Shown here one piece after another: positions 102 to 45,755 of a DNA stretch of 64,000 bases (position 1 is the first letter of the stretch; every line of letters begins with the position of its first letter). A model generated the notes under the pieces. It was given only the letters and a program-made list of their open reading frames with translations. It was not told where the DNA came from and ran no database searches. The position numbers and the translations under genes are program-made. The stretch covers positions 1 to 64,000 of the forward strand of contig JAUNQW010000002.1 of the NCBI GenBank assembly GCA_030535975.1. The letters are read 5' to 3'. The DNA comes from Atopococcus tabaci. GTDB taxonomy: Bacteria; Bacillota; Bacilli; Lactobacillales; Carnobacteriaceae_A.

Positions 102-1799
102 TTAAATATAATTTAATGGGTTTTTCGCTGCACCGTTTTCTCTAACTTCAAAGTGTAAGTGAACACCGGTAGAAAGACCTGTTGTTCCCATCGTAGCGAT
201 ATGCTGACCGCGGGAAACTTGTTGACCTGCTTTTATTTTGAAATCTTTTAAGTGAGCATAGCGTGTCGTGAATCCATTACCATGATCAATAATAATAAGG
301 TTACCGTAGCTTGAGTGATGATTTGCACGAGTGACCACACCAGCTTCAGAAGCTAAGATACGACCGCCGCCACTGATGTCAATACCTTCATGCAGACGGC
401 TTGTTCTATAAATAGGATGGATTCTGTAACCAAAATTAGAAGTGATATGTTTAGCATCTGACGGCCATTGGAAAGCTAAGCGGTCATCTGCTATTGCCTC
501 TGGTTTAACCCAGCCGATTTCCTTGTTGCCGACTGCAACCAGGTAATAAATATCATTGTTATACTGGGCTTTTTGAGTGATAGTAATATCTTTACCAGCA
601 TATTTCGACACATCCACGTGTTGGGCTGCCGGTTTGTATAAAGAACTTGAAACTACATGCTGGCCTTTTGTTGCAGATAAAGCGGCTTTTTTATTCATAG
701 TATTGATTGTATAAAAACTCTTAGGATTCCTTAGGAAATTTTCAGTTTTTTGAGAAAGTGAATGGTTTCCTCCAACCAATGTGAATCGGCTGACACCCTG
801 TTGAGCCGCAAAAGTTAATTGTTGTTTCAGTGTATTGTAATGGTGATTTTTCACTAACAACACTCCTGAGCCATCATTAGCCGCTAATAAAGAAGTTGGA
901 ATAGCATCTGAGAATTTTTCACCATTCACAACATAATAATGTTTATTGCTTGTTCCATAATGGTACAGAATATTTCTGTTCACTTCGTAACGATTTTTAC
1001 CATCAATTCTTGAAACTTTAGGCCCCAATGCTTTTAATTCATTTTCAACTTTTTGAGAAACACTGGATGTTCCGCCGATGATCGTAAAGCGGGAAATAAA
1101 TGGCGCTAAATCTTTAATTGATGAATATAAGGAATTGCCTTTCGTTAACAAGATTGGGATTCCTTTTTGTGCTGAAACAGTTGAAATACTTAAAGCGTCA
1201 GATAAAACTTCACCATTCGTAATGAATACATCATGTTTTTTACCTGGATTTTGAGCAAATTTCTGTTTGGCTACTTCTACTGACTGCTGATACTTATCTT
1301 TAGCCTCTACGCGGCTGACATCAAGTTTCTCATCAGAGAGTTTATTTTCAACTTCTGCACTGATTTTATCTTGATCACCCACCAGGACGACTTCTTTTGC
1401 CTCTAATCGATCTAACTCGTGATCAGTCGCTTCAGTAGTTTCATTTTCTCTTGTGTAAAGTAAAGGCGCATCATCACTACCCGCCAGAGGTAAACTTGTA
1501 AGAGCATTGGCCGGGTCATCCCCTTGAACCACATAGGCTTTATCAGATTCGTTCCACCCAGAGGATGAAATTTCAGCCGCATTATGGTAACGGTCGTACC
1601 CACTAATTCTGTTCACTTCATTTTGTTGGTTAGTTGGTTGATTGTTTTGAGCTTGTGTCACTGAAGCCTCTGCTCCTGCAGGGTCAGTATTCTGTTCTTG
1701 AGCTTGAACTTCTATATTATTGCTTAAAGCAAGTAATGCAAGGGCAACGGTACTGGTAAAGCCCATTTTTAAGGTTTTTTTATTTAGCAAGATAGTCAC
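102..1799 (-). CDS. Secreted M23 (LytM-type) endopeptidase with three CWB2 modules and an SH3-like domain
   Basis: This is probably an exported peptidoglycan endopeptidase held non-covalently in the wall. Residues 1-34 form a signal peptide (Lys-rich start, hydrophobic core, cleavage near VQA-Q). A short Q/N-rich linker is followed by three CWB2 (PF04122-like) repeats at about 62-160, 160-265 and 265-365, with the VNRISGYDRY, VSRVEAKDKY and VSRIDGKNRY entries and the VLVGD/IIGG/LVGG ends. Residues 370-440 look like a bacterial SH3/GW module (ending EIGWVKPEAI). Residues 448-565 are an M23 domain with H470xxxD474, H516 and H547-L-H549, a complete zinc and catalytic set. The start is GTG with AAAGGG just upstream; a TTG three codons later is possible. 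It stands alone between two terminators. CWB2 modules are familiar from clostridia and are unusual in this order. The substrate bond is not predictable. Confidence 0.85.
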   Translation of the reverse strand: MTILLNKKTLKMGFTSTVALALLALSNNIEVQAQEQNTDPAGAEASVTQAQNNQPTNQQNEVNRISGYDRYHNAAEISSSGWNESDKAYVVQGDDPANALTSLPLAGSDDAPLLYTRENETTEATDHELDRLEAKEVVLVGDQDKISAEVENKLSDEKLDVSRVEAKDKYQQSVEVAKQKFAQNPGKKHDVFITNGEVLSDALSISTVSAQKGIPILLTKGNSLYSSIKDLAPFISRFTIIGGTSSVSQKVENELKALGPKVSRIDGKNRYEVNRNILYHYGTSNKHYYVVNGEKFSDAIPTSLLAANDGSGVLLVKNHHYNTLKQQLTFAAQQGVSRFTLVGGNHSLSQKTENFLRNPKSFYTINTMNKKAALSATKGQHVVSSSLYKPAAQHVDVSKYAGKDITITQKAQYNNDIYYLVAVGNKEIGWVKPEAIADDRLAFQWPSDAKHITSNFGYRIHPIYRTSRLHEGIDISGGGRILASEAGVVTRANHHSSYGNLIIIDHGNGFTTRYAHLKDFKIKAGQQVSRGQHIATMGTTGLSTGVHLHFEVRENGAAKNPLNYI

Positions 1800-2032: not shown

Positions 2033-3451
2033 CTATAAGATGTAACGTGATAAATCTTCATCCGCTGCAATATCGCCCACTTTACCATCGACATAGGCTT
2101 CTGTGATGGCTACTTCAGCATAAGACATATCCGGTGCCTCAAAGAGTAGTTCTTCCAGTACATTTTCTAGTAAAGTATGAAGTCGTCTGGCACCAATATT
2201 TTCAGTTTCAGTATTAACCTGGAAAGATAAATCTGAAATTCTTTGGACCGCCTCTTGTGTGAAAGTTACATCCACATTTTCTGCCTTTAGCATCGCTTGA
2301 TATTGTTTAGTCAAAGCATTGTGCGGCTCCGTTAGTATACGATAGAAGTCCTCTGCTGTCAGATCATCTAATTCGACCCGGATTGGAAAGCGCCCTTGCA
2401 GCTCAGGGATAAGGTCGCTGGGTTTGCTTTGAGAAAAAGCCCCTGATCCAATAAACAAGATATGGTCTGTTTTAATGACTCCATACTTTGTATTTACATT
2501 AGACCCTTCGACAATAGGTAAAATATCACGCTGAACGCCTTCGCGAGATACTTCTCCAGATTGACTATTGCTTTTAGAAGCTATTTTATCAATCTCATCA
2601 ATAAATATAATACCTGTATTTTCAGCATAATGAATGGCCTCTGACTGAATGTCTTCTACTTTGACAAGTTTATCAGCTTCTTCATCGGTTAAAATATCTA
2701 AAGCTTCTTTGACTGTCAGAGTTCTTTCTAATTTACGTTTAGGTTGAAGTGCACTTAAACTCTGGCTTAAATCGATACCCATCTGTTCTAAGCCCGCATT
2801 CATCGGACCTGTACCCGCCTGCGTTTTTTCTTCAATCTTAACAGTTACTTCTCTAGTATCTAACTGACCAGAGTGAACTTGCGGTCTTAGCTCTTGACGT
2901 TTTTTTTCAATTTCCTTGGTTATCTTTTCTTCGGGTTCATAATTAGGCATCATATCTTCCGGTTTCATGCCCATATTTGACAATACGGACTGAAAAGGAT
3001 TACCTGCCTGGCTTGGTTCTTTCTTTTCACCTGGAACTAAAGCTGCAACTACACGGTCTACAGCTTTTTCATAGGCTTCTGGACGGATTTTTTCCTGCTT
3101 GTTTTCCTTAACTTTTTTGATAGATACTTCTACCAGGTCCCGAACCATCGATTCGACATCACGACCGACATATCCAACCTCAGTGAACTTAGTCGCCTCC
3201 AGCTTAACAAAAGGAGCTTGAACAATATTAGCTAGACGACGTGCAATTTCTGTTTTTCCTACACCTGTTGGACCGATCATTAAAATATTTTTAGGTGTGA
3301 TTTCTTTTTGCATCTCTTCATCTAATTGTAATCGGCGGTATCTATTTCTTAAAGCAATAGCTACCGCTCGCTTGGCACTTTCCTGGCCGATCACATATTT
3401 ATCCAGCTCTTCTACAATTTCTTTAGGTGTTAAATCAATATTTGTTTCCAT
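2033..3451 (-). CDS. hslU: HslU (ClpY), ATPase subunit of the HslVU protease
   Basis: AAA+ unfoldase that feeds substrates into the HslV peptidase in the cytoplasm. Walker A GPTGVGKT lies at about residues 60-67. The long intermediate (I) domain covers roughly 110-230, Walker B is FIDEIDK, and sensor and arginine-finger regions follow. The protein ends LSRYIL, the C-terminal tail that docks between HslV subunits in this family. Length is 472 residues from the ATG at 3451, which has GGAG five bases upstream. An in-frame GTG at 3457 overlaps that ribosome binding site and is less likely. It starts eight bases after the hslV stop. In Bacillus and Enterococcus codY often follows; here a terminator does. 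Confidence 0.97.
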   Translation of the reverse strand: METNIDLTPKEIVEELDKYVIGQESAKRAVAIALRNRYRRLQLDEEMQKEITPKNILMIGPTGVGKTEIARRLANIVQAPFVKLEATKFTEVGYVGRDVESMVRDLVEVSIKKVKENKQEKIRPEAYEKAVDRVVAALVPGEKKEPSQAGNPFQSVLSNMGMKPEDMMPNYEPEEKITKEIEKKRQELRPQVHSGQLDTREVTVKIEEKTQAGTGPMNAGLEQMGIDLSQSLSALQPKRKLERTLTVKEALDILTDEEADKLVKVEDIQSEAIHYAENTGIIFIDEIDKIASKSNSQSGEVSREGVQRDILPIVEGSNVNTKYGVIKTDHILFIGSGAFSQSKPSDLIPELQGRFPIRVELDDLTAEDFYRILTEPHNALTKQYQAMLKAENVDVTFTQEAVQRISDLSFQVNTETENIGARRLHTLLENVLEELLFEAPDMSYAEVAITEAYVDGKVGDIAADEDLSRYIL

Positions 3452-3459
3452 AGACACTC

Positions 3460-4009: not shown

Positions 4010-4909
4010 CTATGATCTAGAAAAATATTTCTTGTATTGCTCTTGCAGATTTTCCTTCGTTACATCCGTATAGACTTGAGTGGAACTCAGGCTCGCATGA
4101 CCGAGAAACTCTTGAACTGTACGGATATCTGCCCCATTGTTTAACAGGTGCACCGCAAAAGAATGTCTAATTTTATGCGGATGTATCTTTCCTTTTAAAG
4201 AAGTTTTTTTTATTATTTCTCTTAGTATATATTGAACACCTGAAACCGTTAAAGGTTCTCCATGATGATTAATAAATAAATAGGAATGCTCTTTTTTATG
4301 GTGATTCATCAGTAGACTGCGACCATTTTTAATATACTTTGTCAGAGCATCATAGGCAAATTCTCCAAAAGGAACATACCTTTCTTTCTTTCTTCTTCCA
4401 CTTACCCGAAGAATACTCAAATCAAAATCAAGATCTTCCAATAAAAGATTAACACATTCGCTGACACTTAAGCCGCTGGCATAAAGGAGCTCGAGTAAGG
4501 CTTGGTTACGCAAGTCTAAGGGCTCGTCCCCATCCACCGCTTGAAAAAGTTGATCCATCTCTTCTAAAAAGAAGAAAGAAGGTTTTCGAAAAGAAACTTT
4601 TTTCATATTTAGATGAGAGAATGGATTATAATCTATTTCCTCATTTCTTAATAAAAAGTGGTAAAGGGACCTTAAACTTGACATTTTTCTTGCTATCGAG
4701 CGATTCTTGTATTTTTTATTTATCAATTGAGACATGTACATACGGGCATCATCTAAACTGGCTTTGAGTAAAGAAGGTTCACCAGTCTGTGCTAGAAAAC
4801 GAATGAATTGCCGGCAGTCACTCAAATAGGCTTGACTTGTCAGCTTAGAATAGTGACGCTCATTAGTCAAATAAGACTCAAAGTAGGTCATAATCGATTC
4901 GTTATTCAA
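4010..4909 (-). CDS. xerC: XerC-type tyrosine recombinase with a degenerate active site
   Basis: By position next to hslVU this is the XerC/CodV subunit of the dif recombinase. It has an N-terminal SAM-like core-binding domain (about 1-90) and a catalytic domain (about 105-299). The second catalytic Arg (HPHKIRHSF), both His and the Tyr ([15 protein letters not shown]) are present. Two of the six catalytic positions differ: the first Arg, normally in GLRVSE, is Ser148 (GLSVSE, codon AGT at 4466-4468), and the beta-hairpin Lys, normally in GKG, is Arg172 (GRRKKER, codon AGA at 4394-4396). I start it at the TTG at 4909, seven bases after AGGGG; an ATG at 4927 lacks a ribosome binding site. Catalysis may be lost or weak. 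Confidence 0.9.
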
Positions 4910-4987
4910 AAAAACACCCCTATTCATTATATACCATATGACATGAATAGAGGTATTCTACAATTAATAAGTTAAAATTAAATTAAG

Positions 4988-7069
4988 TTAATCTACTTCT
5001 TCTTCCTCAGGAATTTCTTCATAATCGCCATTTGGACAAATTATATTTTTAGAGCCTCGTTTTTTCTTCTCAACTAGGAAGTGATCACATTTAGGACAGT
5101 TTCTTCCAATCGGTTTGTCCCATGAGGAGAATTCACAGTCTGGGTACCGTTCACATCCCCAGAAAATTCGTCCTTTTTTCGTTTTACGTTCTACAATCTC
5201 TCCCTCGCCACACTCCGGGCAGGTCACTCCGATTTTTTTGAGAATAGCCTGGGTATTTCGACAGTCTGGGAAATTACTACAGGCATAGAATTTTCCATAC
5301 CGTCCCATTTTGATAACCATTGGATTTCCGCACTTTTCACAATCAAATCCGGCAGGTTCATCTTGAATTTCAATTTCTTCGATGTTTTCCTCCGCTTCTT
5401 CCACCTTTTCATGGAATGGACGATAGAAATTATCGATTAATTTTCTCCATTCTTGTTCTCCCTGCTCCACGTTATCTAGTTTGTTTTCCATGTCAACTGT
5501 AAAGTCGACGTCGACTAGTTCCGGGAAAGCTTCCGATACGAGGTTGTTAACAGCTTCGCCTAACTCAGTCGGCTCGAATCGTTTGGCTACCATCTGTACA
5601 TAGTAGCGTTTTCTTAGAGTTTCAATCGTAGGAGCATAAGTCGACGGGCGTCCCACTCCATTTTCTTCCAGCCATTTAATTAAAGCAGCTTCAGTAAAGC
5701 GGGCAGGCGGCTGAGTAAAGTGCTGTTCTGGTGAGATAGAGTCTGATTTGACTGTATCTCCTTTCTCCAGTTCGGGTAATATATTATCTTTTTTCTTGGA
5801 TGATGTCTTATAGACTTTGGTAAATCCTTCAAATTTCATTTGAGAACCGTTAGCTCTAAATTTAACTCCATTCTGCTCAATATCAGCTCTAACCGTATCA
5901 AAGACTGCTGGCGTCATTTGTGATGAAACAAAACGAGACCAGATGAGAGCATACAGTTTATATTGATCAGCAGATAAATACTTTTTAATCGACTCCGGTG
6001 TTCGCGTGACGTCGGTCGGCCGAATCGCTTCGTGAGCATCTTGCACATTGGCCTTCTTTGGCTTAACATCAGGTTTTATTTGAGAGTACTCTTCCCCATA
6101 TTCCTCAATGATGAATTCGGCAGCTGCATTTTCGGCCAAAGGTGAAATACGAGTCGAGTCTGTACGCATGTAGGTGATCAAACCTTGGGCTGCTGCACGA
6201 CCTGTTTTAATTCCTTCATAAAGCTGCTGGGCAATCATCATCGTCTTACCCGTTCTAAAATTAATTCGATGGGCAGCATCCTGCTGCATGGTAGATGTTT
6301 TATAAGGGGCATAAGGATTACGCTTTCGTTGACTCTTAACCACATCAGTAACATCGAATTCTTTATCCTGATCAATCAGAGACATCACTTCTTGCACATC
6401 TTCATTCGATTTCAGTTCTTTTTTCTTTCCATTAAGATGAATAAAGGAGGCATCAAATTTTCTGCGTCCCTTTTTAAATTTAATATCTATCGACCAATAC
6501 TCTTCCGGTTTAAACTCTCGGATTTTTTTCTCACGATCCACGATGGTTTTAAGAGCCAGGGATTGGACACGTCCTGCACTTAAGCCGCTTTTTATTTTTT
6601 TCCAGAGAATAGGCGATATTTCATAGCCCACAATTCGGTCTAAAATCCGACGGGCCTGCTGGGAATCAACTAGATCATTATCAAGCTTACGCGGTACTTT
6701 AAAAGCATTTTTTACAGCATCTCGAGTAATCTCATTAAAGACTACTCGGTTCTCTGCTTCAGAATCTAAATCTAATATGTGACTGATATGCCAGGCTATG
6801 GCTTCTCCTTCTCTATCCGGATCCGAGGCCAGATAAACATTTTCTGCTTTTTTTGCAAATTTCTTCAAGTCCTTAACTACAGGACCCTTACCGCGGATTG
6901 TAATATAATCTGGTTCATAACTATTTTCAAAATCTATCCCCATCCGACTCTTGGGCAAATCTCTGACATGGCCTTTACTGGCCACCACTTTATAATTTTT
7001 ACCTAAATATTTTTCTATAGTTTTAGCTTTTGCTGGTGATTCCACGATCACTAAGTTTTTATACGACAT
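4988..7069 (-). CDS. topA: DNA topoisomerase I
   Basis: Type IA topoisomerase that relaxes negative supercoils, 693 residues. The Toprim domain at the start has [17 protein letters not shown] and the acidic triad in [14 protein letters not shown]. The active-site Tyr300 lies in TYMRTDST. The C-terminus carries zinc ribbons: two full C4 modules (CEKCG...CSNFPDC and CPECG...CERYPDC) and a third, CPKC...CPNGDY, where the usual fourth Cys is replaced. An acidic tail EEEEVD closes the protein. It lies between dprA and xerC, an order common in Firmicutes (dprA-topA-codV). Confidence 0.97.
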
Positions 7070-44853: not shown

Positions 44854-45747
44854 TTATGATCTGGGATGGTACTTATTATATTCCTCAGTCAGGCGTTCTT
44901 TGGAAAGCTTGGTATAGATTTGAGTACTAGAGATATCTGAATGCCCCAGTAATTCCTGAACGACTCTGACATCTGCTCCACTTTCTATAATATGACTCGC
45001 AAAAGAATGCCTTAACGTATGAGGTGATATATTGTCAGTAATTCCTGCTTCTTGAGCCATCTTCTTAATATTTTTCCAGACACCTTGTCTCGATAAGGAC
45101 TGCCCCCTGTAGTTTAAGAAAACATGAGGAACTTCTTGAGTGTTTTTGTCAATTAAAAGAGGTCTTGCATTATCTAAATAGTTCCTTAACCACTCTTTAG
45201 CTATAGATCCCAAAGGAATCATCCGCTCTCGACTCCCTTTTCCAAGGACTTGGATAAAATCCATGCCTAAGTACAGATCCTCCAGAGACAAATTAATCAT
45301 TTCACTGATGCGCATTCCAGTCGCATACATGACTTCCAACACGGCTCGATCACGTATGCCTAAGGGTGTCGAAACATCAGGCATAGCTAACAAATCCTCC
45401 ATCTCTTCCAGACTTATAATTTTAGGGAGACTTTTCTGCTTTCTGGGAGGATCAATATATTGCATAGGATCAGTTTGAATGATTTCTTCCTGACTCAAAT
45501 ATTTAAAATAACTCCGCAAACTGGATATCATCCGGATCAGGGTATTATCTGCTTTGCCACTGTCTCTTAAACTCTCTAAAAAAGTTAAAAGATCATAGCG
45601 ATCCACTTTTTGGATAGAATTCATATGATTTTTATCTAAATAGTGATGAAAGTGAGTGAGATCTCTCTCATAAGAAATAATAGTATTGTATGAAAGTCTT
45701 TTTTCATTTTCTAAATAAGCGAAATAACTTTCTACCTGTTCTTTCAT
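44854..45747 (-). CDS. xerD: XerD tyrosine recombinase
   Basis: Subunit of the dif recombinase that resolves chromosome dimers. 297 residues. An N-terminal core-binding domain lies at about 1-85. All six catalytic positions are present: Arg in YATGMRISEM, Lys in GKGSRERMIPLG, HTLRHSF for His and Arg, LGHSDISSTQIYT for His and Tyr. This contrasts with the XerC at 4 kb. The end KYHPRS is typical of XerD. It lies between cvfB and the ribT-like gene, as in many Firmicutes. Confidence 0.96.
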   Translation of the reverse strand: MKEQVESYFAYLENEKRLSYNTIISYERDLTHFHHYLDKNHMNSIQKVDRYDLLTFLESLRDSGKADNTLIRMISSLRSYFKYLSQEEIIQTDPMQYIDPPRKQKSLPKIISLEEMEDLLAMPDVSTPLGIRDRAVLEVMYATGMRISEMINLSLEDLYLGMDFIQVLGKGSRERMIPLGSIAKEWLRNYLDNARPLLIDKNTQEVPHVFLNYRGQSLSRQGVWKNIKKMAQEAGITDNISPHTLRHSFASHIIESGADVRVVQELLGHSDISSTQIYTKLSKERLTEEYNKYHPRS

Positions 45748-45755
45748 AGTGAATC

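What the first reader, a model, noticed from the sequence alone, without database searches (positions are those of the whole stretch)
4394..4468. XerC with two of six catalytic residues replaced, next to an intact XerD
The first catalytic Arg (R148 in E. coli XerD; GLRVSE) is Ser, codon AGT at 4466-4468, and the beta-hairpin Lys (K172; GKG) is Arg, codon AGA at 4394-4396. The other Arg, both His and the Tyr are kept, the frame is open and the gene remains in the hslVU operon. In tyrosine recombinases both positions contribute directly to catalysis. XerC may serve as a non-catalytic partner for XerD, or dimer resolution may rely on XerD alone or on another recombinase.
Basis: partly seen in the sequence, partly recalled or inferred. 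Interest (0 to 1): 0.6.

Follow-up and report, generated by a model that had tools for sequence, protein, structure and literature searches.

The report
XerC recombinase missing two catalytic residues
In this bacterium, one of the two enzymes that normally separate joined chromosomes has lost key active-site parts, and the same genome carries a different, intact recombinase with its own single DNA site that may be taking over the job, as it may already have done in a relative, Aerococcus suis.

Summary
The window's XerC (4010-4927, minus strand) has Ser at Arg-I (AGT, 4466-4468) and Arg at the hairpin Lys (AGA, 4394-4396). In 85 other XerC of the order both positions are invariant (85/85 R, 85/85 K). 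The window protein breaks six otherwise invariant columns; no other sequence breaks more than two. XerD and FtsK-gamma are intact. The frame is open and XerC's branch is no longer than XerD's, so it is not a plain pseudogene.

Most likely XerC can no longer cut or join DNA efficiently. The genome also holds a third tyrosine recombinase (contig C47, 368 aa, full active site) with one 32-bp palindrome just downstream. The other 26 family genomes lack this gene. It recurs in Aerococcus: one palindrome per genome in 8 of 8 carriers tested, none in 7 non-carriers, and dif just upstream in 7 Aerococcus loci. A. suis has the pair but no XerC, no XerD and no dif beside it. I propose a single-recombinase Xer module displacing XerCD, with this genome half-way. 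Loss of XerC catalysis and activity of the module are inferred, not shown. An IntDOT-like rewiring of the active site remains possible.

The parts
4010..4927 (-). xerC, 305 codons (start may be nearer 4912); two of six catalytic residues substituted
   Evidence: ORF; best NCBIfam hit TIGR02224 XerC, 312.5 bits, below its 335.15 cut-off; synteny topA-xerC-hslVU
4466..4468 (-). codon 154 AGT (Ser) at the Arg-I position
   Evidence: Arg in 85 of 85 other XerC
4391..4396 (-). codons 178-179 (Arg-Arg) in place of the catalytic Lys and following Gly of the beta-hairpin
   Evidence: Lys-Gly in 85 of 85 other XerC
4064..4066 (-). codon 288 Asp in place of an invariant His two residues after catalytic Tyr286
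   Evidence: His in 85 of 85 other XerC
44857..45753 (-). xerD, full catalytic hexad
   Evidence: passes the NCBIfam XerD cut-off, 378.2 vs 329.6 bits
3460..3996 (-). hslV, downstream neighbour, evolving at an ordinary rate
2033..3457 (-). hslU
4988..7069 (-). topA, upstream neighbour

Best explanation
XerC in this lineage has lost, or nearly lost, its own strand cleavage and joining activity, and the XerCD/dif system is in decline because a second, self-sufficient Xer-type module is present. That module is a tyrosine recombinase of about 360-378 aa with a complete active site and one 32-bp site some 120-190 bp downstream of its gene (CTATGTCCGCTAA-GGGTAA-TTAGCGGACATAG: two 13-bp inverted arms, 6-bp centre). 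On a chromosome dimer the two copies of this single site would be recombined by the one enzyme to give monomers, as in XerS/difSL, XerH/difH and XerL/dif. Shown: the substitutions, the intact third recombinase, one palindrome per genome beside it, and the absence of XerC and XerD from the A. suis assembly. Inferred: that the palindrome is the crossover site, that the module resolves dimers, and that this relaxed selection on XerC.
For: Arg-I and Lys are lost where 85/85 relatives keep them. In Cre, R173K gives no covalent adduct or product and K201A is catalytically inactive (PMC4499138, PMC4381057). Breaks in the window's XerC are more radical than those in its XerD (mean BLOSUM62 0.0 vs 1.5, P=0.007). 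The third recombinase is found in this genome only among 27 of its family and is 71-75% identical to Aerococcus homologs. One palindrome per genome in all 8 carriers tested, none in 7 non-carriers; it is an island of identity in flanks that do not align. Dif lies about 0.1-0.35 kb upstream of the gene in 7 Aerococcus loci, which puts the module at the terminus. A. suis keeps the module and the topA-parE-parC-recombinase gene order but lacks xerC, has no XerD hit and no dif there. Gene and site side by side is a noted hallmark of single-recombinase systems (PMC5357621).
Against: At least five Aerococcus genomes keep an intact XerC alongside the module, so the module alone does not relax XerC. 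XerD is intact, and XerC's branch length (0.71) does not exceed XerD's (0.87). Thirteen random breaks among 95 conserved columns would hit two or more catalytic residues 19% of the time, so targeting of the active site is not shown. The assembly is 85% complete and dif is expected off the held contig, so its absence is not informative. The position of the module in this genome is unknown. No recombination assay exists.
Confidence: 0.42

Rival explanations
1. XerC is kept as a non-catalytic DNA-binding partner. It occupies its half of dif and activates XerD; XerD makes the first strand exchange and the Holliday junction is resolved by replication or nucleases.
For: Open frame; N-terminal and catalytic domain identities to relatives fall in parallel with those of XerD, and the branch is no longer than XerD's; XerD and FtsK-gamma are intact. 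XerD cleaves first in the FtsK pathway (PMC5357621).
Against: H288D, H302F and P303S lie in the C-terminal tail, where partner contacts are expected, so the interface is not specially preserved. No dif found in the held assembly.
Confidence: 0.22
2. The active site is rewired and not dead. A hairpin Arg (R178 or R179) takes the Arg-I role and K180 or K181 takes the Lys role, as in CTnDOT integrase, where an Arg elsewhere replaces the missing Arg-I.
For: IntDOT lacks Arg-I and works through another Arg (PMC8138268). From memory the IntDOT residues are Arg285 and Lys287, the same Arg-x-Lys spacing as R178-x-K180. The window hairpin has gained two Arg and a Lys close to where Arg-I and Lys were lost.
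Against: Invariant positions outside the hairpin (L274, H288) and near-invariant T259 are also lost. The structure model is too poor over the last 30 residues to place the active site. No relative shows an intermediate state.
Confidence: 0.2
3. Recent pseudogene: xerC is dead and drifting, with no partner role and no compensation by the third recombinase.
For: Radical changes at invariant sites; below the NCBIfam XerC cut-off.
Against: 305 open codons; 82 of 95 otherwise family-invariant columns kept; overall rate no higher than XerD.
Confidence: 0.1
4. Assembly or base-calling artefact in a draft genome.
For: 57 contigs, 85% complete.
Against: At least six separate invariant positions changed, frame open, estimated contamination 0.02%.
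Confidence: 0.03

Closest known systems
XerC (CodV) of Bacillota, topA-xerC-hslVU operon
   Same: Orthologous position, length, fold, both His, Arg-II and Tyr
   Different: Arg-I is Ser, Lys is Arg, four more invariant columns changed; below the NCBIfam equivalog cut-off
CTnDOT integrase (IntDOT)
   Same: Natural tyrosine recombinase without Arg at Arg-I
   Different: Integrase of a Bacteroides conjugative element with an arm-binding domain; its replacement Arg was tested biochemically, here nothing is known
XerS/difSL (streptococci), XerH/difH (epsilonproteobacteria), XerL/dif (Legionellales)
   Same: For the third recombinase: about 360 aa, one recombinase, one site beside the gene, near the terminus in Aerococcus
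   Different: Palindrome unrelated in sequence to dif; XerS model score 76 vs cut-off 267; XerCD coexist with it in most Aerococcus; function untested
Lactobacillus helveticus with XerCD and XerS together
   Same: Two dimer-resolution systems in one genome, read as a possible evolutionary intermediate (PMC3025954)
   Different: No catalytic loss in XerC was mentioned in the passages read

Membership tests
XerC | Score above the curated equivalog cut-off | tested here: not met
   Best hit is TIGR02224 XerC but 312.5 bits, cut-off 335.15
XerC | topA-xerC-hslVU gene order | tested here: met
XerC | Catalytic hexad R-K-H-R-H-Y | tested here: not met
   Ser and Arg replace the first two; the other four are kept
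XerC | Strand exchange at dif together with XerD | not testable with these tools
   No assay; dif of this genome not in the held contigs
IntDOT-like rewired recombinase | No Arg at Arg-I; a replacement Arg serves the scissile phosphate | tested here: inconclusive
   Arg-I absent; model unreliable in the C-terminal segment
Single-recombinase Xer system (third recombinase) | Complete catalytic hexad in a recombinase of about 350-380 aa | tested here: met
   GLRTIE, GKGHREK, HSLRH, LRHSS, IYAQ in L064:856-1962
Single-recombinase Xer system (third recombinase) | One dif-like inverted-repeat site per chromosome next to the gene | tested here: met
   One palindrome beside the gene in 8 of 8 carriers, 0 in 7 non-carriers; that it is a crossover site is not shown
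Single-recombinase Xer system (third recombinase) | Site in the replication terminus | tested here: inconclusive
   Next to dif in 7 Aerococcus loci; position in this draft unknown
Single-recombinase Xer system (third recombinase) | Stands in place of XerC and XerD | tested here: inconclusive
   True for A. suis, not for the other Aerococcus checked
Single-recombinase Xer system (third recombinase) | Recombines two copies of its site, under FtsK control | not testable with these tools
   Needs an excision assay
XerS | Score above the NCBIfam NF003462 cut-off | tested here: not met
   Third recombinase: 76.1 vs 267 bits

The most novel reading that the evidence does not exclude
The third recombinase and its 32-bp palindrome form an undescribed single-recombinase chromosome-dimer-resolution system. 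It settled beside dif in Aerococcus, was passed to this lineage, and is displacing XerCD/dif: complete in A. suis, half-way here, where XerC has lost catalytic residues while XerD is still whole.
Probability: 0.35. Interest if true: 0.75.

Novelty: new variant of a known kind. Interest (0 to 1): 0.55.

Why it matters
XerCD/dif is nearly universal, yet XerS, XerH and XerL show that it has been replaced several times; how a cell passes through such a replacement is not known. A genome with a damaged XerC, a whole XerD and a new recombinase-plus-site module, with relatives at what look like the stages before and after, would make that transition directly testable. It would also be a natural test of which tyrosine-recombinase active-site residues can be dispensed with.

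Tried and rejected
Dif search in this genome: no match at three mismatches or fewer; XerD-half-site hits on C38 and C47 looked like chance. Dif absence was not used as evidence, because six other family genomes also lack a match and the expected location lies off the start of contig C28. A scan of genome contigs with the window XerC found no close relative, so dN/dS could not be computed. The palindrome as an intrinsic terminator: flagged by the scan in this genome, but other species lack a T-run after it, some have a separate terminator-like hairpin in front of it, and its primary sequence is conserved, so a plain terminator is unlikely. Four plasmid-borne relatives of the third recombinase (34-38% identity) showed no such palindrome. 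No viral contig holds the palindrome. The IntDOT paper itself is not held. AlphaFold2 gave mean pLDDT 81.8 but about 52 over the last 30 residues; Foldseek confirmed only a XerD/XerA-type fold.

Full report
Observation. The ORF at 4010-4927 (minus) encodes XerC between topA and hslV. Codon 154 (4466-4468) is AGT, Ser, in GLSVSEC; codon 178 (4394-4396) is AGA, Arg, in SGRRKKER. HMMER aligns these motifs to GLRVSE and GKGNKER of E. coli XerD. The remaining hexad residues are kept. XerC from 25 family genomes and 60 further genomes of the order give 85/85 Arg and 85/85 Lys. The Gly after the Lys is Arg (85/85 Gly), and T259V, L274F, H288D and P303S also depart from invariant or near-invariant positions. 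Across 86 sequences the window XerC breaks six otherwise invariant columns; the next worst breaks two.

Is XerC simply decaying? In FastTree trees of the family the window tip is 0.71 for XerC, 0.87 for XerD and 0.22 for HslV, so XerC does not evolve faster than XerD in the same genome. What differs is the kind of change: XerC breaks are radical (mean BLOSUM62 0.0), XerD breaks conservative (1.5; P=0.007), and the XerC breaks are also more radical than those of other family XerC (P=0.013). A random draw of the same number of breaks would hit two or more catalytic positions about 19% of the time, so the pattern fits relaxed constraint and does not show selection aimed at the active site. XerD has all six residues and FtsK-gamma is present.

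Expected effect. Arg-I is the more strongly conserved Arg of tyrosine recombinases; Cre R173K yields no covalent adduct, Holliday junction or product (PMC4499138), and Cre K201A is catalytically inactive (PMC4381057). Changing both positions should abolish or cripple XerC cleavage, although Lys to Arg is milder than Lys to Ala. The caveat is CTnDOT integrase, where Arg-I is absent and another Arg takes its place (PMC8138268). The hairpin GRRKKER could do likewise; from memory the IntDOT residues are Arg285 and Lys287, the same spacing as R178 and K180. The AlphaFold2 model is not good enough over the last 30 residues to judge.

A third recombinase. A Pfam search of the genome finds three tyrosine recombinases: XerC, XerD and a 368-aa protein on contig C47. 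The last has a complete hexad, lies among housekeeping genes (DEAD-box helicase, aconitase, citrate synthase, named by eye), has no homolog at E 1e-30 in 26 other family genomes, and is 70-75% identical to proteins of Aerococcus. TopA is only about 63% identical between the same genomes, so horizontal transfer or unusual conservation is likely. It is not XerS. More distant relatives (33-38%) are plasmid-borne.

Its site. Downstream of this gene in all carriers lies CTATGTCCGCTAA-N6-TTAGCGGACATAG, with at most two arm mismatches, centre GGGTAA or TAGTGA (or its complement TCACTA), in flanks that do not align. A whole-genome pattern search finds exactly one copy in each of eight carriers and none in seven genomes without the gene, five of them in the Aerococcus genus group. 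One site per chromosome fits dimer resolution better than an integrated element with two ends. In seven Aerococcus loci a clear dif lies just upstream of the gene, which puts the module at the terminus.

Aerococcus suis. Its best match to XerC is 5.5e-8, the third recombinase itself; there is no XerC or XerD hit, while two other carriers show both at 1e-50 or better. The gene order from topA to the recombinase is kept, but xerC after topA is missing and a CodY-like gene (named by eye) stands there. No dif is found beside its recombinase. Five other Aerococcus carriers keep an intact XerC active site.

Synthesis. Carriers with everything intact, this genome with XerC damaged and XerD whole, and A. 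suis with both gone can be ordered as a replacement series. XerS and XerH genes sit beside their sites in the same way (PMC5357621), Legionellales use XerL alone (PMC9765430), and L. helveticus has been read as an intermediate with two systems (PMC3025954). That the module resolves dimers, and that it relaxed selection on XerC, are inferences. The series joins genomes of different families, so it shows possible stages and not one line of descent. A non-catalytic partner role for XerC and a rewired active site remain open.

Limits. One genome in its genus, 85% complete, no close relative for dN/dS, dif not located, no experiments.

Noticed in passing
L064:641-672 and homologous loci L156-L159, L170-L174: Conserved 32-bp palindrome CTATGTCCGCTAA-N6-TTAGCGGACATAG, one per genome, next to a third tyrosine recombinase; candidate new dif-like site.
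   Followed up: partly
Aerococcus suis, L186-L187 (contig NZ_FWXK01000002.1): xerC missing after topA and no xerD hit in the genome, although gene order is otherwise kept; chromosome dimer resolution must use something else.
   Followed up: partly
window 44857-45753: XerD has Lys where most XerC and XerD have His two residues after the Tyr (IYTK), while XerC has Asp at the same position; a possible paired charge change.
   Followed up: no
window 102-1799: Protein with cell-wall-binding-like repeats and an M23-like peptidase end (by eye) at the contig edge; relatives have dif 5-33 kb further on in that direction.
   Followed up: no
family genomes G013, G015-G019: No canonical dif at three mismatches or fewer although XerC looks intact in those checked; dif may be diverged there.
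   Followed up: partly
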